DNA of 49,862 nucleotides from Venenivibrio stagnispumantis (GTDB lineage: Bacteria > Aquificota > Aquificia > Aquificales > Hydrogenothermaceae): assembly GCF_900182795.1 (NCBI RefSeq), contig NZ_FXTX01000012.1:1-49862 (forward strand). The letters are read 5' to 3'. The notes under the pieces are model-generated. The model saw nothing but the letters and a program-made list of their open reading frames with translations, searched no databases and was not told the DNA's origin. Both the position numbers and the translations under genes were made by a program. How positions within the stretch are numbered: position 1 is the first letter of the stretch; each line of letters begins with the position of its first letter. Shown piece after piece: positions 21,139 to 32,172 of the stretch.

Positions 21139-21462
21139 ATGTTAAAATTAAATTATCCTTCAACCTTCAAAATAAGATTTTCAAAGAGATTTTTGTATAT
21201 TCTATCTTCTGTAATTATTTTATTTTCTAATTTTATTACCATAACCCACCACCACGAAGATGGAAAGCCCCATTATGATTGTCCGGTTTGTGTTCTATCA
21301 ATAAATCAACAATCTAATAATCCGGAAGAACTTATAAATGATTTTAAAATATATGTTGAAAAACCTATTTATGAGTATAATTATAACTCTCCTATATTAC
21401 AACTTATATTAAATATTCCTATTAATCCAAGGGCTCCTCCGGTATCTCCTTTATATATTTAA
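21139..21462 (+). CDS. Small membrane-anchored His/Cys protein, zinc-chaperone-like (DUF2946-like)
   Basis: 107 residues. One hydrophobic segment (about residues 19-36, FLYILSSVIILFSNFITI) is followed directly by a metal-ligand cluster THHHEDGKPHYDCPVC (three consecutive His, another His, two Cys). The C-terminus ends NPRAPPVSPLYI, reminiscent of the RAPP/RGPP ending of DUF2946-type proteins, some of which are annotated as zinc chaperones of ABC uptake systems. It is the first gene of a run with a porin and ZnuA/ZnuB-like proteins, supporting a periplasmic zinc-binding role. The ATG is only 8 nt past a perfect -10 box. No classical SD is present, consistent with leaderless translation. Confidence 0.65.
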   Translation: MLKLNYPSTFKIRFSKRFLYILSSVIILFSNFITITHHHEDGKPHYDCPVCVLSINQQSNNPEELINDFKIYVEKPIYEYNYNSPILQLILNIPINPRAPPVSPLYI

Positions 21463-21501
21463 CTTTAGCTTGAAAAATTTTTAAAAAGGAGGTATCGGAG
21501 T

Positions 21502-22911
21502 ATGAAAAAATTATTAATTACTACTTTATTATCTACTTCTGTTGCTTTTGCATCTGAAACAGAAGATATAAAAGAGTTAAAGAAGCAACTTGAATTACAA
21601 AAAGAGCTAATCCAGCAATTACAACAAAGATTACAACAACTTGAAGAAAAACAGGAAAAAAGTGCAAAGATAGAAAAGGAAGCAGAAAGAAGAATATCAG
21701 AAATTGATAAATTATCTAATCCTTTTTCACAGGCAAAATTTGTGCCGGATATTTCATTTATAGCAGATTTTTCTTATGTTAATAGAAATATAAGAGATGA
21801 AACTTATAAAGCCCTTGAAATACCGGCTTTTGTCCATAGCCATCCGGAAGACAATGAGGGATTAACAGACCTAAATAAAGATAGAGGATTTAATCTAAAC
21901 TACGGAGAGCTTTATGTAGCTTCACCGGTTGACCCTTATTTTGATTTAGTCGGAATATTCCACCTTTCGGAAGATAGCTTTGAGATAGAAGAGGCTTATA
22001 TAAATACAAAAACATTACCTTTTGGATTAAAAATAGGTAAATTTAAAAGTTCGTTTGGAAGGTTAAATCAACAACATCCACATAGTTGGGATTTTGCAGA
22101 CCAACCACTTGTTTATAATGCAATATTTGGAGCAGATAACCTACTTGAAAAAGGAGTTCAGCTTAACTGGGTTGCACCAACTCCATTTTATCTACAAATT
22201 GGCACAGAGTTATTACAGGGCGAAAATGAGTTAAGCTTTGGCACAAAAGGATTTAGTGTAAATACAAAGAAAGATGGAAGTGGCGATAATATCAATGTAC
22301 CGGATACTCAAAAACCAAATCTTTATACATTATTTGCTAAAACATCTTTTGATATTACAGACAATTTAACCACTTTATTTGGATTATCTTATGCAGAAGG
22401 TAAAACAAGAATAGACCATTTAGAAGATGCTGATAACCCCCATGCTTTTGCCGGCAGAACAAAGATATACGGAACTGATTTAACATTAAGATACAATATA
22501 GATTCTTACAGATATATCTCATGGCAATCTGAATATATATACAGAAATATGGATGGAACAAGATATGGATATAATGATAATGATAATCTCGTAATGCCAC
22601 ATTTAGAAAAAAAACAATCCGGACTTTATTCCCAAATTGTGTATAGATTTAATCAAAGATGGAGAACAGGTTTTAGATATGACCTTTTAAATAAAAATGA
22701 CGTTTATATAAACGGAATAAATCAAAATCAACCGGATAATCTTTATAAATATGCTTTTATGATAGATTATTCACCTACTGAGTTTTCAAAAATAAGATTA
22801 CAATTTAATCAAGATAGGTCAAAGTTTTTTGAAGGCAGTAGAAAAACTATAAATGAAGTTATATTACAATTTAATATGGCAATCGGGGCACATGGAGCCC
22901 ATCCATTTTAA
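21502..22911 (+). CDS. Outer membrane porin-like protein, probably zinc-uptake associated
   Basis: 469 residues. A cleavable signal peptide (MKKLLITTLLSTSVAFA) is followed by a coiled coil rich in Leu/Gln/Glu (residues ~22-70), as in periplasmic stalks of trimeric or peptidoglycan-associated porins. From about residue 78 alternating hydrophobic/aromatic beta strands run to the end (e.g. FDLVGIFHLSEDSFEIEEAY, KSGLYSQIVYRF-like strands). The last residues, LQFNMAIGAHGAHPF, are a terminal beta strand with final Phe, the usual BAM recognition signal. It is not a TonB receptor, as no TonB box or plug is seen. It lies between the small His-rich gene and a ZnuA-like gene, so passage of zinc or its complex is inferred. 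AAGGAGGT lies 8 nt before the ATG. Confidence 0.8.
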   Translation: MKKLLITTLLSTSVAFASETEDIKELKKQLELQKELIQQLQQRLQQLEEKQEKSAKIEKEAERRISEIDKLSNPFSQAKFVPDISFIADFSYVNRNIRDETYKALEIPAFVHSHPEDNEGLTDLNKDRGFNLNYGELYVASPVDPYFDLVGIFHLSEDSFEIEEAYINTKTLPFGLKIGKFKSSFGRLNQQHPHSWDFADQPLVYNAIFGADNLLEKGVQLNWVAPTPFYLQIGTELLQGENELSFGTKGFSVNTKKDGSGDNINVPDTQKPNLYTLFAKTSFDITDNLTTLFGLSYAEGKTRIDHLEDADNPHAFAGRTKIYGTDLTLRYNIDSYRYISWQSEYIYRNMDGTRYGYNDNDNLVMPHLEKKQSGLYSQIVYRFNQRWRTGFRYDLLNKNDVYINGINQNQPDNLYKYAFMIDYSPTEFSKIRLQFNQDRSKFFEGSRKTINEVILQFNMAIGAHGAHPF

Positions 22912-22934
22912 AAAAATTACAGGAGGTGTGAAAA

Positions 22935-23813
22935 ATGCTTAGATATATATTTCCATTAATTTTATTTATTTTTTCTTTCTCTTTTGCAAAGATAAAAGTT
23001 GCTACAACTTATCCTTATATAGCTGATATTACTCAAAAAATAGCAAAAGATAAAGCCAATGTAATTTCTCTTGCTAATGGAAATCTTGACCCTCATTTTA
23101 TTACACCAAAGCCATCTTTAATAGTAAAATTAAGAGATGCAGATTTGCTTATAATAAACGGAGCTTCTTTGGAGATTGGATGGCTTCCACCACTTATAAG
23201 ACAGGCTAATAATCCAAAAATAAATCCAAATACTAATGGATTTTTAGATTTATCTAATTTTGTGGAGCTAATACAAAAACCGGAAAATGTATCAAGAGCA
23301 GGTGGTGATGTACATCCGGAAGGAAATCCTCATTTTTATCTAAATCCAAACAATATCCCTATCTTAGCAGATGCAATAACCCAAAGATTATGTGAAATAG
23401 ATAGTGGAAATTGTAGCTTTTATAAACAAAATCTAAATGATTTTAAAAAGCAGTTTTCAGAAAAAAAGAAAGTATGGGATGAAAAGATGAAATCTTTAAA
23501 AGGTTCCAAAGTTTATGAATACCACAGACTTTATGATTATTTCTTAACAAATTACCAAATTATAGTAGCCGGAACCTTAGAACCACTTCCTGGAATACCA
23601 CCAACCTCAAAACATCTTCAAAATCTTATTGAAAATTCAAAAGATGTTAAATTTATTCTTCAAGACGTTTATCATAGCCAAGATGCAGCTAAATTTGTAT
23701 CTTCTAAAACCGGTATTCCTGTAATTATATTGCCTCATGATGTTGGAGCTATTCCTGAGGCTAAGGATATATTCTCTTTGTTTGATATTATTGTGGAGAG
23801 ATTAACAAAATGA
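22935..23813 (+). CDS. Zinc/manganese-type ABC transporter substrate-binding protein (ZnuA/TroA family)
   Basis: 292 residues with an N-terminal signal peptide (hydrophobic FPLILFIFSFSFAK). Family features: KVATTYPYIADITQKIAKD at the mature N-terminus; LDPHFITPKPS with the first metal-binding His; GNPHFYLNPNN with the second; YEYHRLYDYFL with the third; and QDVYHSQDAAK and GAIPEAKDIFSLFD in the C-terminal lobe. It lacks the long His-rich loop of many ZnuA proteins. Zn versus Mn cannot be decided from sequence, but the upstream His-rich protein argues for Zn. AGGAGGTG is 6 nt upstream. The stop overlaps the permease gene by 4 nt. Confidence 0.9.
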   Translation: MLRYIFPLILFIFSFSFAKIKVATTYPYIADITQKIAKDKANVISLANGNLDPHFITPKPSLIVKLRDADLLIINGASLEIGWLPPLIRQANNPKINPNTNGFLDLSNFVELIQKPENVSRAGGDVHPEGNPHFYLNPNNIPILADAITQRLCEIDSGNCSFYKQNLNDFKKQFSEKKKVWDEKMKSLKGSKVYEYHRLYDYFLTNYQIIVAGTLEPLPGIPPTSKHLQNLIENSKDVKFILQDVYHSQDAAKFVSSKTGIPVIILPHDVGAIPEAKDIFSLFDIIVERLTK

Positions 23814-24541
23814 TAGATATTTTATTTACTGCATTTTTACTGATTATTGTTTTGCTTGGTATCCATTCATTTTTTGGAGTTGAAATAATCCGGAGGGGGA
23901 TTATATTTACAGACCTTGCAGTCGGGCAGATGGCAGCGGTGGGAGCTGCTGTCTCCCTTTATTTTTTTAATGGTGAGTTTTTGTATCCAATAGCTGTTTT
24001 ATTTGCAGTAATTACCGGATTAATTATATCTTTTGCCTCTAAATTTGATAAAGAGATAGAAGCGTTTATAGGACTTATTTATGCTTTTGGTATATCTACC
24101 GTTTTTATTATCTTTTCAAAATATCCTCACGGAATGGAAGATTTTCAAAATCTTATGGCTACCGATATTTTATTTGTATCCTTAGATACGGTTTTAAAAG
24201 TAGCTATTTTATACATATTTGTAGGAATAGCTTTATATTTTCTGAAAAATAAAGATATAGCTTTTTTTGTTTTGTTTTCTCTTACAGTTGCAAGCTCTGT
24301 AAAAGTTGCCGGTGTATTGATTGTTTTTTCTATCTTAATAGCCCCTGCTTATATTGCTATCAAACTTTTTAATAAGCATCTTTTTATATATGCATGGATT
24401 ATAGGATTTTTTATAAATGCCTTTGCTGTTTATATATCTTACCAGTTTGATTTTCCAACCGGATATACGGTTGTATTTTTTAATGCATTTTCCGGTATAT
24501 TGGTAGCTATTTATAAAATTATAAAGGAATTTCAATTATAA
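23810..24541 (+). CDS. Metal ABC transporter permease (ZnuB/TroC family)
   Basis: 243 residues with about seven hydrophobic segments spread over the whole length. The ABC-3 family pattern is visible: RRGIIFTDLAVGQMAAVGAA near residue 25-45 and SSVKVAGVLIVFSILIAPAY near 160-180. It starts 4 nt inside the substrate-binding protein gene. The operon ends here: the next gene is convergent and overlaps by 23 nt. No ATPase (ZnuC) gene is present in the window, so the complex must borrow an ATPase encoded elsewhere. Confidence 0.88.
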   Translation: MIDILFTAFLLIIVLLGIHSFFGVEIIRRGIIFTDLAVGQMAAVGAAVSLYFFNGEFLYPIAVLFAVITGLIISFASKFDKEIEAFIGLIYAFGISTVFIIFSKYPHGMEDFQNLMATDILFVSLDTVLKVAILYIFVGIALYFLKNKDIAFFVLFSLTVASSVKVAGVLIVFSILIAPAYIAIKLFNKHLFIYAWIIGFFINAFAVYISYQFDFPTGYTVVFFNAFSGILVAIYKIIKEFQL

Positions 24542-25511
24542 ACACAGTTTTATTATCCTGCCTGTAATATTTTAAATCTCCATTTAACATTAATTTTAAT
24601 CTTGTTCTTAAATTGGAAAGCCCTGTCCCTTCTTTTATTTTTTGAAAATATATTCCATCATCAATAACTTTTATAACCACTTTATTATCTGATTTTTTTG
24701 CTTCTATCCATATATTTCCTTTTGATTTAACGCCGTGGATTATAGCATTTTCAACAAGAATCTGTATAGATAATTTTGGAATGTTAATATTTAAAACTGA
24801 GTTATCTATATCAAAATAAAAATTTATATTTGGAAATCTTAATTTTTGTATAAAAATATAATGTTTTACTATCTCTATCTCTTTTTCAATACTGATTAAA
24901 CTTTCTTCATCAATTATTTCTCTTAAATACTTAGAAAGAGATATAACTGCTTTTTCTGCAAGATTTGGATTTATATGGATTAATTCTAAGATTGTGTTTA
25001 ATGTATTAAATAAAAAATGCGGATTTATCTGGTATTCAAGGGCTTTTAGTTTGGATGTTATTAGGGATTTTTGAAGTTCTGCTTCTATCTTTCTTAAATT
25101 TACTATTTTATAAAGCAGATTTGCTATCAATGCAGTCAAAAATCCTACAAATAAAAATCCAACATAAAGTATATTTTTTGGTAAGTTTATATGGATTAAA
25201 TTTAAATAAAAAATTATGTAATATCCGGTAATACTTCCTAAGAAACCAGATGAAAATGAAAAAAATAAGCTAACAGGCTCCCAATATTTTTCATCTATTT
25301 TAGTTAAGATATATTTATTTGAAAAATTTATCAAAATAAAAGAGTAGATAAAAATTGATAACCCAAAAATCATACCTGCCAAAAATCCATAAAAAAAACC
25401 GGATAATCCGATTAATACTGATATAAATGCTCCAAGTATTCCTCCGAATGTTAAACCAAAAAATAAAACAATAAGCCAATCATTAAAAGATATATTTATA
25501 AAATATTTCAC
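24519..25511 (-). CDS. LytS-type sensor histidine kinase
   Basis: 330 residues. Residues 1-135 contain about four membrane-spanning segments with very short loops, so the stimulus is probably sensed in the membrane or through a small ligand. A short coiled linker leads to the His_kinase (PF06580) box QINPHFLFNTLN with the phospho-acceptor His165. The HATPase part has the N box LVENAIIHGVKSKG and the G box GTGLSNLRTRL. It shares an operon with the LytTR regulator at 27353-28090, the expected partner. It overlaps the upstream oxidoreductase gene by 29 nt and converges with the metal permease. Confidence 0.92.
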   Translation of the reverse strand: MKYFINISFNDWLIVLFFGLTFGGILGAFISVLIGLSGFFYGFLAGMIFGLSIFIYSFILINFSNKYILTKIDEKYWEPVSLFFSFSSGFLGSITGYYIIFYLNLIHINLPKNILYVGFLFVGFLTALIANLLYKIVNLRKIEAELQKSLITSKLKALEYQINPHFLFNTLNTILELIHINPNLAEKAVISLSKYLREIIDEESLISIEKEIEIVKHYIFIQKLRFPNINFYFDIDNSVLNINIPKLSIQILVENAIIHGVKSKGNIWIEAKKSDNKVVIKVIDDGIYFQKIKEGTGLSNLRTRLKLMLNGDLKYYRQDNKTVFIIEIPL

Positions 25512-26976
25512 TAAAATCCCTCTCTATAAGGCTGATAATATTAAAAACTCCAAGTATAACCCCCGGAAATCCCTGTCCGGGGAAAACAGAATCTCCAACA
25601 ATATATAAACCATTTATCGGAGTTATTCCAGATGGATAATTTAGCATAGTATATTCCATTAATAATGGAATACCACCAACTGTTCCCTTATATCTTTCTG
25701 TATATCTTTTAAATGTTCTTGGAGTTCCTACCATAATATTTTTTATCTCTAAATTTTTAAAAAATGGAAGTTTTTCATATAATTTTTCCAATATAAAATC
25801 TTTAAGCATCTCTTTTTTTTCTTTATACTCCTCGGCAGTTAAATTTTCCCATAAATCTATTTTACAATGGGTTGATATTGTTATGCTTCTAAATCCATCT
25901 TTATTCATTATATTATCATCTTTGTCCGATACAGAAAGAAAAAATGAATAACTTCCGGTATAAGGATTTTTCTCATGAATTATCTGATAATGATGTTCAT
26001 TTAAAATATTTTTATCATCTTTTACATTAAAATATAAAGTAGCAGAAGACCATATTTTGTTGTATTTTTTTATATTTTTTTCACAGATGCTATCTTTTAA
26101 TTGATTATCTAAAATTTCACAAAAATCCCATATTGTTTTATTTAATAAAACCTTTTTTGAGTAATACTCACCGGATTTTGATAAAACTTTAAAAATATCT
26201 TTATCTTTGGATATTTTTATAACTTTATCTTTTCTTTTTATATTTTTTTCATCTTTTACCATAATTTCAAGAATTTGATTTATACCGCCAAAAACATAAT
26301 AATTATCAAGATTTGGATAAGTAAGTCCCATAGATGCTATGGAAAAACTAACTTCATCCCAATATCCCTGTGATGTCATAAGTATCTGACTATTTAAAAA
26401 ATCTATATAATCTTTTGAAATATCCGGCACATAACTTTTTATAACATCTTTTGCAGAAAAAACAAGTTTTAATCCATTTTTACAAAAATATCCACAATTT
26501 AAAAAGAATTTTTTAACAATATCAATTTTATCATTTGGATTAAAAGGAATTAATTTATATAAATTTTCCCAGTTAATATCAGCTGTTTTATATATTTTAT
26601 CCCACAAAATTTTATTATTTTTATGGTAAAAACTTTTATTTATTTCTTCAAAAGCTTTCTGTTTATCTTTATATCTTTTTATAACTTTATCTTTGACAAA
26701 AACAATTATTGATGGGTCTATCGGTTTTACAGGCAGTTCTTTTTTATCTTTTTGTGCTATTTTTAGTAATATATTAAGTGGCATGTTATCTTTTAGTCCA
26801 ACAAGAGTAGAAGCACCTACATTATATAGATAACCATCTTTTTCAAATGTTCCGGCACATCCACCAAGATAATCCAATTTTTCAAAAAGTAATACATTTT
26901 TACCAATACTTTTCAGTAAAATATAAGAAGCAACACCACCAATGCCACCACCGACAATTATATAATCGTAAATCAT
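25483..26976 (-). CDS. FAD-dependent oxidoreductase of the carotenoid isomerase/desaturase (CrtISO/CrtD-like) family
   Basis: 497 residues. The N-terminal FAD-binding motif is YDYIIVGGGIGGVASYILL, followed by LLFEKLDYLGGCAGTFEKDGY and NVGASTLVGL, very like the CrtISO/CrtI N-terminus. The C-terminal FAD motif is NGLYIVGDSVFPGQGFPGVILG. Members isomerise or desaturate carotenoids (poly-cis lycopene and relatives); some act on other polyisoprenoids or retinoids. No phytoene synthase or other carotenoid gene lies in the window, so the substrate is open. It is sandwiched between the LytT and LytS genes, 1 nt after the 98-residue gene and overlapping lytS by 29 nt. This argues that the two-component system controls or senses its product. 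Confidence 0.82.
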   Translation of the reverse strand: MIYDYIIVGGGIGGVASYILLKSIGKNVLLFEKLDYLGGCAGTFEKDGYLYNVGASTLVGLKDNMPLNILLKIAQKDKKELPVKPIDPSIIVFVKDKVIKRYKDKQKAFEEINKSFYHKNNKILWDKIYKTADINWENLYKLIPFNPNDKIDIVKKFFLNCGYFCKNGLKLVFSAKDVIKSYVPDISKDYIDFLNSQILMTSQGYWDEVSFSIASMGLTYPNLDNYYVFGGINQILEIMVKDEKNIKRKDKVIKISKDKDIFKVLSKSGEYYSKKVLLNKTIWDFCEILDNQLKDSICEKNIKKYNKIWSSATLYFNVKDDKNILNEHHYQIIHEKNPYTGSYSFFLSVSDKDDNIMNKDGFRSITISTHCKIDLWENLTAEEYKEKKEMLKDFILEKLYEKLPFFKNLEIKNIMVGTPRTFKRYTERYKGTVGGIPLLMEYTMLNYPSGITPINGLYIVGDSVFPGQGFPGVILGVFNIISLIERDFSEIFYKYIF

Positions 26977-26977
26977 C

Positions 26978-27274
26978 TTAATTTAGATTAAACCCTTTTA
27001 TATTAAATTTGTTTGTATTTCTGACAACTATCTTTATATCTGATTTTGCATCAACAACTTTTATTTTTATAACCTTACTTGAAGTTCTATAAGTAAGTAA
27101 TCCATCAGCAACGAACCCCGTTTTGCAAGTCTCTGTCGGGTTAATCTCTATGCTAAAATCTTTATCAGATATAAATGAAAATTTTAATTTATCACCTTCT
27201 AAATTGCGAATTTCTAAAAAATCTCCATTTTTTACATAAAAAATTTGGATTGCATAATCTAAAAAGATAACCAT
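26978..27274 (-). CDS. Hypothetical 98-residue protein
   Basis: No family recognised. It is predicted almost entirely beta strands (alternating hydrophobic pattern in KLKFSFISDKDFSIEIN, SSKVIKIKVVDAKSDIKIVV), with a single Cys (TETCKTGF) and no signal peptide. A small beta-sandwich or barrel is plausible. AAGGAGC 5 nt before the ATG supports the start. It is separated by 1 nt from the oxidoreductase gene downstream and by 78 nt from the response regulator gene upstream, so it is co-expressed with both. Confidence 0.75.
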   Translation of the reverse strand: MVIFLDYAIQIFYVKNGDFLEIRNLEGDKLKFSFISDKDFSIEINPTETCKTGFVADGLLTYRTSSKVIKIKVVDAKSDIKIVVRNTNKFNIKGFNLN

Positions 27275-27352
27275 AATAAGCTCCTTTTTGGAATTTTTTG
27301 TATCTTTAATATAAGGATTGAAGAATGAAAATTAAACTAAAAATTTTACTGA

Positions 27353-28090
27353 TTATATATCAAGATAATCTCTTAATTTTTTTGCACCTTCTCTGCTTGT
27401 TTTGATTGTATCCGGTATATCTTTAAAAGATATTAAAAATTTAGATTGTTCAACAATTTTCATCTCTTTAATCTTTGTAAGATTTACAATATAACTTTTA
27501 TGAACTTTAAAAAATCCTTTATGAGATAAAAGCTCTTCAAATTCATATAGCTTTCTTTTAGATAAATAATCTTTATCTTTTGTTCTGATTAATGTTTCAG
27601 ATAGCTCTGCTTTTATGTAATAAATATCATCCGGTCTAAGTAATACTACCTTATTTAATGTTTTTGCAGGTATTAAAAAATCTTGGTCTGTTGCTATAAC
27701 TTTTGCCACATTTACAAAATTTCTTTCTTTTTCTTCTAAATTTTTAACTTTTTCAATAGCTTTTTCCAAATCTTCAAACTCATAAGGTTTTAAAAGATAA
27801 TCCACAGAATTTAATTTAAATGCTTCTAAGGCATAATCTCCATAAGCAGTTGCAAATATTATGTAAGGTTTAGTTCCTTTCTCTATTATCTCTTTTGCTA
27901 CTTCTAAACCGGTTCCATCAGGAAGTTTTATATCAAGAATAACTATATCCGGTTCAGTTTCAATAATTTTCTGTACTGCCTCTTTTTTAGTTTCTGCTTC
28001 TCCTACAACCTCAACATCTTTTATATCCTTTAAAAATCTTTTTAATCTTTCTCTTGCTATATATTCATCATCAACTATAAAAACTTGCAT
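27353..28090 (-). CDS. LytTR-family response regulator
   Basis: 245 residues. The receiver domain has acidic pocket Asp7/Asp8, phospho-acceptor Asp53 (VILDIKLPDGTG) and the conserved Lys in DYLLKPYEFEDL. From about residue 145 a LytTR DNA-binding domain follows, with DIYYIKAELSETLIRTKDKDYL and the terminal GFFKVHKSYIVNLTKIKEM typical of the family. It is partnered with the LytS kinase three genes downstream. LytTR proteins bind paired ~9-bp direct repeats. I could not identify a clear pair in the adjacent 28254-28438 intergenic region, although ACATTT-like elements occur there. Confidence 0.93.
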   Translation of the reverse strand: MQVFIVDDEYIARERLKRFLKDIKDVEVVGEAETKKEAVQKIIETEPDIVILDIKLPDGTGLEVAKEIIEKGTKPYIIFATAYGDYALEAFKLNSVDYLLKPYEFEDLEKAIEKVKNLEEKERNFVNVAKVIATDQDFLIPAKTLNKVVLLRPDDIYYIKAELSETLIRTKDKDYLSKRKLYEFEELLSHKGFFKVHKSYIVNLTKIKEMKIVEQSKFLISFKDIPDTIKTSREGAKKLRDYLDI

Positions 28091-28113
28091 CTCTGGCTCC
28101 TTTTTTTAAAATA

Positions 28114-28129
28114 GCCGGCAAAAGCCGGC
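28114..28129 (-). terminator. Terminator-like hairpin after the 35-residue peptide gene
   Basis: GCCGGC (28114-28119), AAAA, GCCGGC (28124-28129): a 6-bp all-GC stem with a 4-nt loop, followed on the minus strand by TATTTT. It lies 16 nt past the small gene's stop and just before the LytTR gene's ribosome site, so it may attenuate read-through into the two-component operon. Confidence 0.6.
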
Positions 28130-28145
28130 ATTAAACATTATAATT

Positions 28146-28253
28146 TTAACCTTTTCCCAAGAGATAGCCAATATAACACACCACTGAAATACCAATAAGA
28201 TGGACTATCCACCATCCTATTCTCAAAAATCTGAATGGTTCTGGTAAATTCAT
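28146..28253 (-). CDS. 35-residue single-span membrane peptide
   Basis: ATG at 28251-28253, stop TAA at 28146-28148. Start well supported by GGGAGGT 8 nt upstream. The product is amphipathic at the N-terminus (MNLPEPFRFLRIGW), then a hydrophobic helix (WIVHLIGISVVCYIGYLLGKG), so one membrane span with a Cys and a His in or near it. Such peptides often stabilise oxidase complexes or regulate membrane sensors. I recognise no family. It has a candidate promoter (TTTATG-17-TATAAT on the minus strand in 28300-28350) and its own terminator, so it appears deliberately expressed. It is divergent from the photolyase and directly upstream of the LytT gene. Confidence 0.75.
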   Translation of the reverse strand: MNLPEPFRFLRIGWWIVHLIGISVVCYIGYLLGKG

Positions 28254-28376
28254 GGCTATTACCTCCCTTTTAAAGTTGTATTATAAATCTAAATGTTTTC
28301 TTATATTCTTTAAATCTTCTTTTATGCAGATTATAGCTTAAAAATTACATTTCATAAAATTAACAAAATTTAACAT

Positions 28377-28405
28377 TTTACATGCAAAAATTACATATTT
28401 ATAGT
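28377..28405 (+). promoter_or_regulatory. Promoter for the photolyase operon
   Basis: TTTACA (28377-28382), 17 bp, TATAGT (28400-28405). Leader of about 27 nt to ATG 28439. The surrounding 28254-28438 region is very AT-rich, with ACAT-containing elements at 28347, 28373, 28380 and 28393 that might bind a regulator. Confidence 0.5.
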
Positions 28406-28438
28406 ATTTTATGAAAAATAGCATTTATAATATACAAT

Positions 28439-29797
28439 ATGAGAAAAGAAAGAATAAACCAGCTTAATGATAAGGATTTTAATTTTTCCGGAAAATATGT
28501 TTTATATTGTATGGAAAATGCCCAAAGGGAAGATTATAATCACGCCCTTGAATTTGCCATACAGATAGCAAATCAGTATACAAAACCGGTAGTTGTAGCA
28601 TTTTTTATAACAGATAAATATAAATATTCTAATCAAAGATATTACAGATTTATGCTTGAAGGAATTATAAAAACTAAAAACCAGATACAAAAAAGAGGAA
28701 TAAATTTTGTTATAAAAAAAGATGATTTTGTAAATGGTTGTTTGTCTTTAAGTAAAGATGCTTTTTGTATAGTTTTTGATAAAAGTTATCTTAAAACCCA
28801 AAGAAATTGGAGGTACAAAGTAGCAGAAAAATCAGATGTTAAAATCTTTGAAGTTGAAACAGATGTTATTGTTCCGATAGAAGTTGTTTCAAAAGATATG
28901 GTTCCTTATGCCTATATATACAGAAAAAAACTTGAAAATTTATTCTTTGAATTTTTATACGATTATCAAAAATTAGAACCAAAAATAAAAACAGAAATTG
29001 ATTTAGAAAGCCTAAATTTTGAAGAGCCACAAAACTATCTTGATATTTTGAATATAGATAAATCTATATCTACTGTAGAAAAATATTATAAAGGTGGATT
29101 TGATGAAGCTGAAAATAGATTAAAAGATTTTATAGAAAGAAAATTAAGCTACTATAAAGAGTTTAGGTCAGACCCAAGTAAAGATTATCAATCAAATTTA
29201 AGCCCGTATCTACATTTTGGTCAGATTTCTTCTCAAAAAATTATGGTAGAGATATTAAAGCATTACGATTTTCAAGATGAAAATATCCAATCATTTTATA
29301 ATGAAGCTGTGGTTTGGCGGGAGCTTGCAAGAAATTTTTGTTATTATAACTCTTTTTACAACTATTATGAAGGTATTCCGGAATGGGCTAAAAAAACATT
29401 GGAAGAGCATTTATCAGACAAAAGAGAATATATATATGATATAGATATACTTGAAAATGCAAAAACCCATGATATATATTGGAATGCAGCACAAAAAGAG
29501 CTTTTAATTACAGGAAAGATGCATAATTACATGAGAATGTATTGGGCAAAAAAATTAATAGAATGGACAGACCACCCACAAAAAGCCTTTGATATAGCCT
29601 GTTATCTAAATGATAAATATGAACTTGATGGAAGAGACCCAAATGGCTATGCAGGAATATCTTGGTGCTTTGGAACCCACGATAGACCTTGGACTGAAAG
29701 AAAAATTTTCGGAAAAATAAGATATATGAATGATAAAGGCTTAGAAAGAAAATTTGATATACATAAATATGTGAAAAAATGGATTACAACTTTATAA
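28439..29797 (+). CDS. phr: Class II deoxyribodipyrimidine photolyase
   Basis: 452 residues, normal for class II CPD photolyases. It uses blue/near-UV light and FADH- to split cyclobutane pyrimidine dimers. The N-terminal antenna domain begins YVLYCMENAQREDYNHALEF. The FAD-binding helical domain shows LSPYLHFGQISSQ and WRELARNFCYYN, and the C-terminus has MHNYMRMYWAKKLIEW, ACYLNDKYELDGRDPNGYAGI and WCFGTHDRPWTERKIFGKIRYM, all hallmark class II motifs. No SD is visible before the ATG. It overlaps the next gene by 19 nt. A photolyase in a presumed hot-spring or vent chemolithotroph indicates exposure to sunlight. Confidence 0.96.
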   Translation: MRKERINQLNDKDFNFSGKYVLYCMENAQREDYNHALEFAIQIANQYTKPVVVAFFITDKYKYSNQRYYRFMLEGIIKTKNQIQKRGINFVIKKDDFVNGCLSLSKDAFCIVFDKSYLKTQRNWRYKVAEKSDVKIFEVETDVIVPIEVVSKDMVPYAYIYRKKLENLFFEFLYDYQKLEPKIKTEIDLESLNFEEPQNYLDILNIDKSISTVEKYYKGGFDEAENRLKDFIERKLSYYKEFRSDPSKDYQSNLSPYLHFGQISSQKIMVEILKHYDFQDENIQSFYNEAVVWRELARNFCYYNSFYNYYEGIPEWAKKTLEEHLSDKREYIYDIDILENAKTHDIYWNAAQKELLITGKMHNYMRMYWAKKLIEWTDHPQKAFDIACYLNDKYELDGRDPNGYAGISWCFGTHDRPWTERKIFGKIRYMNDKGLERKFDIHKYVKKWITTL

Positions 29798-30225
29798 AGT
29801 TTTTACATATAATAGGTATATTGATATGGGCATCTTCTGCATCTTCCTTAGGTTTGTTTATGCTATATTCTGCTTACCGGAAAAAAGAGATTGCTTATAA
29901 TGAAGATATAAGAAAATTTTATAGAATTATGACTAATATTGAGATTGTAGGATTTTTATTTGCAATTATGATGGGCTTTCTGATGCTTCATCTTTTAAAA
30001 TTTAGTTTTAATATTATTTGGCTAAATATAAAGATTTTTTTAGTTTTTTCTGTTTTGGTTTTACTTGAAATTATAAATTTTTATTTTGTTAATCTGTATA
30101 TTCCAAATAGTGAAAATAAGATATATGCTTATAAAAAATATGATAAATTTGTGATGATAATAACTTTGCCACTTATTTTTGTATCTTTGTTTATAATTTT
30201 TCTTGCAACTAATAAACCATTTTAA
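29779..30225 (+). CDS. Four-span membrane protein, DUF2269/HemJ-like
   Basis: 148 residues with four predicted membrane helices (about 5-27, 50-72, 78-102, 125-145). The opening FIKFLHIIGILIWASSASS with a His in the first helix resembles DUF2269 and the HemJ/CopD-like superfamily, where membrane His residues bind heme or metal. The exact family is uncertain. It overlaps the photolyase gene by 19 nt and is 12 nt before the DUF523/DUF1722 gene, so the three form one operon. A redox or heme-linked function supporting flavin reduction is only speculation. Confidence 0.7.
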   Translation: MDYNFIKFLHIIGILIWASSASSLGLFMLYSAYRKKEIAYNEDIRKFYRIMTNIEIVGFLFAIMMGFLMLHLLKFSFNIIWLNIKIFLVFSVLVLLEIINFYFVNLYIPNSENKIYAYKKYDKFVMIITLPLIFVSLFIIFLATNKPF

Positions 30226-30237
30226 AAAGGAGCAAAA

Positions 30238-31185
30238 ATGAAGCCTAATATTGTTATAAGTGAATGCATAAATTTAAAGCCGGTTAGATATAATGGTGGG
30301 ATTGTGAATGATGAATTTGCAAAAAAGCTATCCGAATATGTAAATTATATACCGGTTTGTCCGGAAGTTGCAATAGGAATGGGTGTTCCGAGAAATCCGG
30401 TTATATTGATTGAAAAAGATAATGATATAAAAATGATAGACCCACAAACCCAAAAAGATTATACAGACCAGATAATACAATTTTCGCAGGATTTTTTAAA
30501 AAATCTGAAAGATATTGATGGATTTTTATTAAAATCTAAATCTCCAAGCTGTGGAGTAAAATCTGCAAAAAAATATATACAAAATAATAAAGTGGCTGTT
30601 GGAAAAACAAACGGATTATTTGCCCAAAAAGTTATAGAAAATTTTCCGGATATTCCGGTGGAAGATGAAGGAAGATTAAAAGATAACAACATAAGAAGAA
30701 ATTTTTTAGTTAAGATATTTTCTTTTTCAGATTTAAGATACACATTGCAAAATACAAAAGATATAAACCAACTTATAGATTTCCATAAAAGATATAAATA
30801 TCTCCTAATGCTTTATCATCAAACTAATCTTAAAAAATTAGGTCAGATTGTTGCAAATTGGAAAAAAATAGGTTTAGAGGAAACAAAAATCCAGTATGAA
30901 ACTATATTTAAAAAATCATTTCATAAAACCCCATCTGTAAGGTCTCATATAAATGTTTTACAGCATATATACGGTCATTTTTCTAAAAATCTTTCTAAGA
31001 AAGAAAAAGAATATATCCAAAATTTATTTGAAAAAGCAATAAATAAAAAAATAGATATTTCGGTGGTTATTGAGTATATCAAGGGATTTGCATTTAGATT
31101 TGAGAATGAGTATCTTATGGTTCAAAAATATTTTGAGCCTTATCCACATGATTTAAATTTAACCTTTTCCGAGGATAAATTTTGA
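30238..31185 (+). CDS. DUF523 + DUF1722 (YbgA-like) protein
   Basis: 315 residues. N-terminal DUF523: ISECINLKPVRYNGG (normally SxCLLGxxVRYDGG), then VPVCPE-like IPVCPEVAIGMGVPR, then LLKSKSPSCGV, together three conserved Cys. C-terminal DUF1722 (~170-305) carries HKRYKYLLMLYHQ and NVLQHIYGHFSKNLSKKEK. In enterobacteria the DUF1722 gene ybgA is next to photolyase phrB, and the same neighbourhood here with a class II enzyme supports a functional link. A role of the conserved Cys in metal or cluster binding or thiolation is inferred, not shown. AAAAGGAGC lies before the ATG. It converges with holA (27 nt overlap). Confidence 0.9.
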   Translation: MKPNIVISECINLKPVRYNGGIVNDEFAKKLSEYVNYIPVCPEVAIGMGVPRNPVILIEKDNDIKMIDPQTQKDYTDQIIQFSQDFLKNLKDIDGFLLKSKSPSCGVKSAKKYIQNNKVAVGKTNGLFAQKVIENFPDIPVEDEGRLKDNNIRRNFLVKIFSFSDLRYTLQNTKDINQLIDFHKRYKYLLMLYHQTNLKKLGQIVANWKKIGLEETKIQYETIFKKSFHKTPSVRSHINVLQHIYGHFSKNLSKKEKEYIQNLFEKAINKKIDISVVIEYIKGFAFRFENEYLMVQKYFEPYPHDLNLTFSEDKF

Positions 31186-32151
31186 TACAAATAAAATTGA
31201 TTGTTTTTCCGGGTCTTCGTAAAATACTTTTTGGCTGATTTCTGTTTTATATAAAGATTTTACTGCATTTATTAAATCCTGAGTAGATACATTTTTTGAT
31301 AATTTTTGGATAGAGCTTTTTTGGAATGGGTGGGTAATATTTAGCTGTTTAAATATCTCTTCCGGTGGTTTTATATTTTGCAATGTTTTGTAGATTAATA
31401 ATTTATTCAAATAATTAAGTATAAGTGATTGAAGTTCAAAAGGATGGGAAGTTTGCAATAAATTTTTATACATTAAAACTGCCTGTTTATCTTTTGCAAA
31501 AAATTTATCTAAGAACACAAAAACATTTTCTTGAAATTTTGGAACAATGATTTTATCTATATCTTCCTTTGTTATTTCTTCTTTATCTGCACAATATAAA
31601 ATTAATTTTTCAATTTCATGCTTTGCATAATATAAATCATTATCTAATTTTGAAACTAAATATTTTAAGGTTTCATCATCTATTTTTTTTCCTTCTCTTG
31701 TTATTTTATTTTTTATTGAACTTTCAAAAGCAGAAGGAGTGAGAGGCTTGCTTGATATTATATCTGCAATAGTTATAATTGTTTTATAAGGTTCTTTTTC
31801 GGTTAATTTTTCTTTATTGGAAGTTAGGATTAATCTGTTTGGAAGTTTTATATTTTTTAAAAAATGTAGAAAATTATTTTGTTTTTCTTTGGATAATTTA
31901 CTAAAAAATACATCTATATCAATTAAGATAACCGTATTTCCGGTAGAAAATAATCCGGAAGAAGATAATTTATCGTAAATCTGATAATCATCTACCTCAT
32001 CACCCCAAAAAAGATAGCTGTCTTCTTTTTCTTTAAATTTATCAATAATCAATCTTTTTAAATATTCTTCTTGACCATATAACAAAACAACCGGCTTAAA
32101 GCTGTTTATATCAAACTCTTTTATTAGTTTCTGAGCTAATTTCTCTTCCAT
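31159..32151 (-). CDS. holA: DNA polymerase III subunit delta
   Basis: 330 residues from ATG 32151. AGGTGAT upstream favours this over GTG 32160, which overlaps the ribosome site. It is the clamp-loader subunit that opens the beta clamp. The N-terminal domain shows PVVLLYGQEEYLKRLIIDKF, the middle DLYYAKHEIEKLILYC with the delta-typical DNDLYYAKxExEKL motif, and the C-terminal collar helices include FELQSLILNYLNKLL. Its 5' leader overlaps the promoter of the divergent GH57 operon; its 3' end overlaps the DUF523/DUF1722 gene. Confidence 0.9.
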   Translation of the reverse strand: MEEKLAQKLIKEFDINSFKPVVLLYGQEEYLKRLIIDKFKEKEDSYLFWGDEVDDYQIYDKLSSSGLFSTGNTVILIDIDVFFSKLSKEKQNNFLHFLKNIKLPNRLILTSNKEKLTEKEPYKTIITIADIISSKPLTPSAFESSIKNKITREGKKIDDETLKYLVSKLDNDLYYAKHEIEKLILYCADKEEITKEDIDKIIVPKFQENVFVFLDKFFAKDKQAVLMYKNLLQTSHPFELQSLILNYLNKLLIYKTLQNIKPPEEIFKQLNITHPFQKSSIQKLSKNVSTQDLINAVKSLYKTEISQKVFYEDPEKQSILFVSKFILGKG

Positions 32152-32158
32152 TATTATC

Positions 32159-32172
32159 ACCTATGATATAAT
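32159..32172 (+). promoter_or_regulatory. Extended -10 promoter of the alpha-glucan operon
   Basis: ACCTATGATATAAT contains TG-A-TATAAT (TATAAT at 32167-32172). The -35 region is poor, so the extended -10 should carry recognition. The same 14 bases occur at 21118-21131 ahead of the zinc-uptake genes. A start near 32179 leaves a leader of about 27 nt. On the other strand the same bases contain the holA ribosome site. Confidence 0.6.

What the first reader, a model, noticed from the sequence alone, without database searches (positions are those of the whole stretch)
24519..31185. LytS/LytT pair enclosing a carotenoid-isomerase-like enzyme, divergent from a photolyase operon
The two-component genes are split by a 98-residue beta protein and a CrtISO/CrtD-like FAD enzyme, all overlapping. 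A 35-residue membrane peptide and a class II photolyase operon with a membrane protein and a DUF523/DUF1722 protein face outward from the same intergenic region. The set could be a light or redox response: a membrane sensor reading a pigment or quinone state and controlling DNA repair and pigment chemistry. I know of no described system with this makeup.
Basis: inference. Interest (0 to 1): 0.55.

Follow-up and report, generated by a model that had tools for sequence, protein, structure and literature searches.

The report
Light-damage gene island in hot-spring bacteria
A two-component sensor pair, a DNA-repair photolyase, a tRNA light-sensitiser eraser, tiny membrane proteins and a pigment-enzyme look-alike travel together among bacteria that cannot make pigments of that pathway, most likely as one undescribed sunlight-damage response.

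Summary
In 61 relatives the LytTR regulator and the CrtISO-like enzyme occur in 17 genomes each, 16 shared. All 17 CrtISO-like genomes also have a photolyase; 42 genomes have neither. The photolyase may be class II or, in Aquificaceae, class I, in the same cluster. A 35-residue membrane peptide occurs in 24 of 136 genomes of the phylum and lies within 1.5 kb of module genes in 24 of 24. Between two families five module proteins are 79-88% identical where UvrA is 69%, so the set moved together. The DUF523/DUF1722 protein has every tested RudS residue; RudS erases photosensitive tRNA 4-thiouridine and often sits in light operons. No phytoene/squalene synthase was found in 61 relatives, so the enzyme is not a CrtISO of a home-made carotenoid. 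Best reading: a light or photo-oxidative damage regulon run by a LytS/LytT-type pair instead of LitR/CarH. Conservation is shown; light control, sensor and substrate are inferred. I found no description in nine full-text searches.

The parts
24519..25511 (-). LytS-type sensor histidine kinase: hydrophobic multi-span N-terminus (about residues 1-135), then His_kinase + HATPase_c
   Evidence: Pfam PF06580 85 bits and PF02518 28.1 bits; NPHFLFN motif at residue 163, LVENA 252, DDG 284, GTGL 295; hydropathy
25483..26976 (-). CrtISO/CrtD-like FAD oxidoreductase of unknown substrate; overlaps the kinase by 29 bp
   Evidence: TIGR02730 172.9 bits, cut-off 586.9; PDB profile match 4rep; relatives 38-65% identical; 24-row clade
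26978..27274 (-). 98-aa fast-evolving beta protein directly upstream of the enzyme
   Evidence: positional homologues in 8 relatives, rank 1 of 399, E=0.03; beta-sandwich/jelly-roll model, pLDDT 82.9
27353..28090 (-). LytTR response regulator (D53 phospho-acceptor; T81, K101)
   Evidence: PF00072 86.7 bits, PF04397 82.8 bits; residues; 51-68% identical in 15 of the other 16 genomes with a match, 47% in G058
28114..28129 (-). terminator-like hairpin between the 35-aa gene and the regulator gene
   Evidence: GCCGGC stem, TTTT loop
28146..28253 (-). 35-aa single-span membrane peptide p35 (core LPE..RF...GWW.VH..GI)
   Evidence: pN/pS 0.16
28254..28438 (.). shared divergent promoter region; three TTACAT words at 28345, 28378, 28391 (candidate regulator sites, unproven)
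   Evidence: relatives' footprint not recognised here
28439..29797 (+). class II-type DNA photolyase
   Evidence: TIGR00591 487 bits, E 7.4e-146, cut-off 550.05; PF00875 43.8 bits
29779..30225 (+). 4-helix membrane protein of the DUF2269/HemJ-like kind
   Evidence: PF10027 28.2 bits, cut-off 28; 4 helices, pLDDT 86.3; invariant K7, H10, W17, R45, E55, W81, K85, E97, D122 in 13 sequences
30238..31185 (+). RudS-like protein (TudS/DUF523 + DUF1722), predicted tRNA 4-thiouridine desulfidase
   Evidence: PF04463 127.2 bits, PF08349 113.7 bits; C10, C41, C105, E43, R52, S102, S104 present compared with RudS

Best explanation
A light-damage (photo-oxidative/UV) response island. SHOWN: the genes are conserved, clustered, arranged in shared runs, and co-transferred. 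INFERRED: the membrane kinase, helped by p35 and possibly the DUF2269 protein, senses illumination or its membrane consequences (photo-oxidised lipid or quinone, excited porphyrin) and phosphorylates the LytTR regulator; the regulator activates its own p35-led operon and the divergent photolyase operon. Output: photolyase repairs pyrimidine dimers; RudS removes photosensitive 4-thiouridine from tRNA so near-UV does not stall translation; the CrtISO-like flavoenzyme alters a membrane isoprenoid or polyene that is not a carotenoid made by the cell, either as photoprotection or to set the lipid/quinone state the kinase reads (its gene overlaps the kinase gene in every locus with both). It works like the LitR/CarH and LdrP light operons but with a LytS/LytT-type pair as regulator.
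For: RR and CrtISO-like: 17 of 61 genomes each, 16 shared; 17 of 17 CrtISO-like genomes have photolyase, 42 of 61 have neither, Fisher 3e-13, 4e-4 by genus (relatedness not removed in the first). Photolyase swapped class II to class I in the same cluster. Single run p35-RR-CrtISO-HK-photolyase-flavin reductase in L096/L113. p35 24 of 24 with module genes. Family-to-family transfer, 79-88% versus UvrA 69%. Distance matrices CrtISO/RR/HK correlate 0.89-0.91. Joint decay in G037 and G058. CrtISO-photolyase pair in a Leptospiraceae MAG without HK/RR nearby. RudS residues; RudS in light operons. Footprint upstream of p35/RR found as top hit in held-out L098 and L101, second in L099. No PSY in 61 genomes.
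Against: No expression or light data. No known photoreceptor domain in the proteins scanned. The footprint is not recognised in the window (best rank 48), and repeat spacing tests were weak. RudS and the DUF2269 gene sit now in one operon, now the other, or elsewhere in the genome. Hydrogenobaculum loci carry the enzyme without the pair; G041 has photolyase without the module. RudS occurs in 24 of 61 at strong scores, including genomes without photolyase. All ties to light come from gene content.
Confidence: 0.6

Rival explanations
1. Redox or oxidant response, not light: the kinase reads quinone or lipid oxidation caused by oxygen or sulfur chemistry; the photolyase and RudS are induced as general stress tools.
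For: The kinase has no photoreceptor domain; a Flavin_Reduct protein belongs to the module in most relatives and fits redox chemistry; the kinase N-terminus is almost all membrane.
Against: Photolyase works only in light, and all 17 CrtISO-like genomes have one; RudS is tied to near-UV.
Confidence: 0.2
2. True photoreceptor: the CrtISO-like enzyme or p35/DUF2269 supplies or binds a chromophore (scavenged carotenoid, porphyrin or the enzyme's own flavin) for the membrane kinase.
For: Enzyme gene overlaps kinase gene in 16 of 16 loci; p35 has invariant W, W, H and was never found without the module; DUF2269 protein keeps an invariant His and is weakly HemJ-like.
Against: No carotenoid source in the genomes; no invariant Lys, Cys or His in the kinase membrane region; nothing shows pigment binding.
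Confidence: 0.13
3. A mobile UV-repair island in which the pair regulates something else and adjacency is incidental.
For: The set moved between families; order varies among genomes.
Against: Independent rearrangements keep the same genes together; class I photolyase stands in for class II inside the cluster; joint decay in G037 and G058.
Confidence: 0.07

Closest known systems
LitR/CarH light operons (Pseudomonas: phrB, litR, rudS)
   Same: Photolyase with RudS, and in P. mendocina an FAD oxidoreductase, in one light-controlled set (passages)
   Different: Regulator there is a B12-dependent MerR protein (with short LOV in some); here a LytS/LytT-type two-component pair, a CrtISO-like enzyme, p35 and a DUF2269 protein
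Thermus LdrP light-inducible megaplasmid cluster
   Same: Light-inducible cluster in a thermophile (title in the reference list; RudS_TT from T. thermophilus); photolyase and carotenoid genes there are recalled
   Different: CRP/FNR regulator and real carotenoid synthesis (recalled); neither is in the present cluster
RudS (TudS-DUF1722)
   Same: Domain order, three cysteines, Glu, Arg and two Ser of the active site
   Different: None seen in sequence; activity untested
CrtISO / CrtD carotenoid isomerase and desaturase
   Same: Best full-length matches TIGR02730 and TIGR02733; PDB 4rep
   Different: 172.9 and 170.9 bits against cut-offs 586.9 and 549.7; no phytoene synthase in 61 relatives
BtsS/BtsR and LytS/LytT two-component pairs
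   Same: His_kinase + LytTR architecture; BtsR model 159.2 bits
   Different: BtsR cut-off 246 not met; no Pfam sensor domain found

Membership tests
RudS tRNA s4U desulfidase | TudS (DUF523) fused to DUF1722 | tested here: met
   PF04463 5-144 and PF08349 187-303, both over cut-off
RudS tRNA s4U desulfidase | three Fe-S cysteines and catalytic Glu, Arg, Ser, Ser | tested here: met
   C10, C41, C105, E43, R52, S102, S104 at the spacing of RudS_KT
RudS tRNA s4U desulfidase | removes sulfur from tRNA s4U | not testable with these tools
   needs enzyme assay
Class II CPD photolyase | TIGR00591 full-length match | tested here: inconclusive
   487 bits over residues 2-448, E 7.4e-146, but under the curated 550.05; PF00875 over cut-off
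Carotenoid isomerase CrtISO | TIGR02730 equivalog cut-off | tested here: not met
   172.9 against 586.9 bits
Carotenoid isomerase CrtISO | acts in a carotenoid pathway (phytoene synthase present) | tested here: not met
   PF00494 in 0 of 61 genomes, control 7 of 14
LytTR-type two-component system | receiver + LytTR regulator; PF06580 kinase | tested here: met
BtsS/BtsR | BtsR NCBIfam cut-off | tested here: not met
   159.2 against 246 bits
HemJ protoporphyrinogen oxidase | TIGR00701 cut-off | tested here: not met
   20.6 against 138.05 bits
LitR/CarH light operon | MerR/B12-binding regulator in the locus | tested here: not met
   none among the 10 proteins scanned, 23810-32160
LitR/CarH light operon | light-induced photolyase | not testable with these tools
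   needs expression data

The most novel reading that the evidence does not exclude
A new kind of bacterial light sensor: a membrane LytS-type kinase with no photoreceptor domain, working with a 35-residue membrane peptide and a HemJ-like 4-helix protein, and coupled to a flavoenzyme recruited from carotenoid metabolism into cells that make no carotenoid, which senses light through a membrane isoprenoid, porphyrin or flavin and controls DNA and tRNA photodamage repair.
Probability: 0.2. Interest if true: 0.85.

Novelty: new variant of a known kind. Interest (0 to 1): 0.5.

Why it matters
Light-controlled photolyase operons are known mainly under LitR/CarH, LOV or sigma-factor control (recalled). 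A transferable module with a LytS/LytT-type pair would add a regulator class, a conserved membrane peptide with no assigned role, and a CrtISO-like enzyme whose substrate cannot be a home-made carotenoid. It makes the question of how non-phototrophic chemolithotrophs notice sunlight directly testable.

Tried and rejected
CrtISO of a home-made carotenoid: rejected, PF00494 absent in 61 of 61. In the genomes of 44 of the 80 named enzyme loci (the only ones given), PF00494 was in 0 of 11 of the module clade, 2 of 4 Nitrospirae and 21 of 29 others; so more distant relatives mostly do live with carotenoid or squalene synthesis, and 8 of 29 do not.

HemJ: rejected by cut-off; Foldseek against PDB found nothing at E<=0.001. 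The 98-aa fold: many unrelated jelly-rolls and beta-sandwiches tie at Z 8-9.5, best Foldseek E 7e-4; no function read from it.

LytTR direct repeats by spacing: highest z 2.7 at 26 bp and 2.3 at 21 bp among 25 spacings tried, not taken as evidence. The footprint blocks for one search were chosen by eye from five upstream regions, so their own leave-one-out ranks (1, 32, 1, 1, 1) are partly circular; only L098, L099 and L101 are independent. Of the other loci not used in building, L094, L100, L104, L108, L109 and the window gave no convincing site.

A cross-phylum case (L124, titled Acidobacteria J001) was dropped: its module scores equal those of locus L220 of G133, which the tool places in the window's order; likely mislabelled. 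Plasmid search for p35: no match.

Literature: nine searches listed no paper describing this set, judged from the listings; only open-licence PMC papers are held, so this is weak. Passages were read in three papers: PMC11417400, PMC9758184, PMC5459899 (nothing of use). One search was too broad to be useful.

Habitat links (hot springs against deep-sea vents) rest on recall and are not used as evidence.

Full report
OBSERVATION. On the minus strand in transcription order: p35 (28253-28146), LytTR regulator (28090-27353), 98-aa protein (27274-26978), CrtISO-like enzyme (26976-25483), kinase (25511-24519). On the plus strand: photolyase (28439-29797), DUF2269/HemJ-like protein (29779-30225), DUF523/DUF1722 protein (30238-31185). 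The divergent promoter region is 185 bp. The minus-strand genes do not all overlap: gaps are 55, 78 and 1 bp, then a 29-bp overlap. A terminator-like hairpin lies between p35 and the regulator. The kinase has NPHFLFN and ATP-binding motifs and the regulator D53, T81 and K101, so both look active.

CONSERVATION. In 61 genomes (own plus 60 relatives) a strong match to the enzyme (39-65% identity outside the window's own, E<=1e-110) is in 17 genomes, the regulator at E<=1e-20 in 17, 16 shared; exceptions are G057 (enzyme only) and G058 (decayed regulator). Photolyase (PF00875) is in 19: all 17 enzyme genomes plus G041 and G058; 42 have neither. G015 has in addition a C-terminal class II remnant found only by protein search. 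Fisher tests: 3e-13 by genome, 4e-4 by genus; the first ignores relatedness. DUF1722 is in 26 (24 strongly; two are weak), more widely than the module. p35 is in 14 of 61, 14 of the 16; the two without it are G006, which keeps only the end of the DUF2269 gene, and G037.

ARRANGEMENT. Neighbourhoods and 80 named loci show a reshuffled but constant set: p35, DUF2269 protein, regulator, RudS-like protein, 98-aa protein, enzyme, kinase, photolyase, and a Flavin_Reduct protein (not seen in the window by profile). In L096/L113 (titled Hydrogenobacter sp. KUB_Bin01) p35-regulator-enzyme-kinase-photolyase-flavin reductase run in one direction. In Aquificaceae (L104, L105, L108, L122, L125, L126, L168, L185) the photolyase is class I (PF03441 in L104; the others by profile) and DUF454 is added. 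Of the 80 named loci 14 have the kinase nearby (L112-L119, L122, L124-L126, L168, L185); 66 do not, most of them distant relatives of the enzyme or short contigs. L120, titled Leptospiraceae SKW199, has the enzyme followed directly by a class II-type photolyase and no kinase or regulator; the Hydrogenobaculum loci L121 and L123 have the enzyme alone.

UNITY. The enzyme, kinase and regulator distance matrices correlate at 0.89-0.91, photolyase with them 0.67-0.80, the RudS-like protein only 0.40-0.54. The enzyme tree gives a 24-row clade (SH-aLRT 98) with Nitrospirota as sister; support was by quick search and one row has a long branch. G037 (stop in the regulator, truncated kinase, split flavin reductase) and G058 (photolyase in two frames, enzyme and kinase absent from the locus, truncated regulator) decay jointly. 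p35 in 24 of 136 phylum genomes is within 1.5 kb of module genes in 24 of 24, with pN/pS 0.16 over 276 pairs.

FUNCTION OF PARTS. The DUF523/DUF1722 protein carries the three cysteines and the Glu, Arg and two Ser of RudS; the RudS paper (passages read) says these genes are often in light operons with photolyase and links s4U to near-UV growth delay. The enzyme is CrtISO-like but not CrtISO: low scores, no PF00494 in 61 genomes although the control rings in 7 of 14; in genomes of named loci 0 of 11 module-clade, 2 of 4 Nitrospirae, 21 of 29 others (44 of 80 loci given). The kinase N-terminus has 17 invariant residues among 15 sequences, none Cys, Lys or His, so a covalent chromophore there is unlikely. 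The DUF2269 protein is a 4-helix model (pLDDT 86) with no PDB match at E<=0.001; its His10 is invariant in 13 sequences. The 98-aa protein is a beta-sandwich/jelly-roll model without informative match.

REGULATION. Upstream of p35/regulator a footprint of the form ACTTACAAAAnnnACCTATGAAACGnAAT was seen by eye in five relatives; a matrix from these finds, as top hit in the locus, the region upstream of the regulator in L098 and upstream of p35 in L101, and second in L099, none of which was used to build it. The window's own region ranks only 48th, so the window has no recognisable copy; it has three TTACAT words in 46 bp instead. This suggests but does not show regulator control.

MECHANISM AND VERDICT. 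The best account is a light or photo-oxidative damage regulon under a LytS/LytT-type pair (0.6). The light signal is inferred from the company of photolyase and RudS. The enzyme's substrate may be a membrane isoprenoid such as a quinone tail (inference), or a scavenged pigment. Rivals: redox sensing (0.2), a true chromophore sensor (0.13), an incidental island (0.07). The set is not described in the papers I could search. I rate it a new variant of a known kind, with a possible new sensor inside it.

Noticed in passing
21139-24541: A small His-rich protein, a 469-aa outer-membrane-type protein, a ZnuA-like binding protein and an ABC-3 permease form a likely zinc uptake operon that converges on the kinase gene (23-bp overlap of ends).
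   Followed up: no
L107 (G008): The enzyme gene is interrupted by in-frame stops while the kinase, regulator, p35 and photolyase genes are intact; other loci (L103, L110) show wider decay of the module.
   Followed up: partly
L124: Record titled Acidobacteria bacterium J001 carries most of the class I version; its scores equal those of G133 in the window's order, so the title looks wrong.
   Followed up: partly
L120:12866-13780: A 304-aa protein without Pfam match directly follows the CrtISO-like and photolyase genes in a Leptospiraceae MAG.
   Followed up: no
29779-30225: The window's DUF2269 protein is closer to the Aquificaceae class I cluster copies (52-59% identity) than to those of the p35 operon in Sulfurihydrogenibium (33-39%), so the island is mosaic.
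   Followed up: partly
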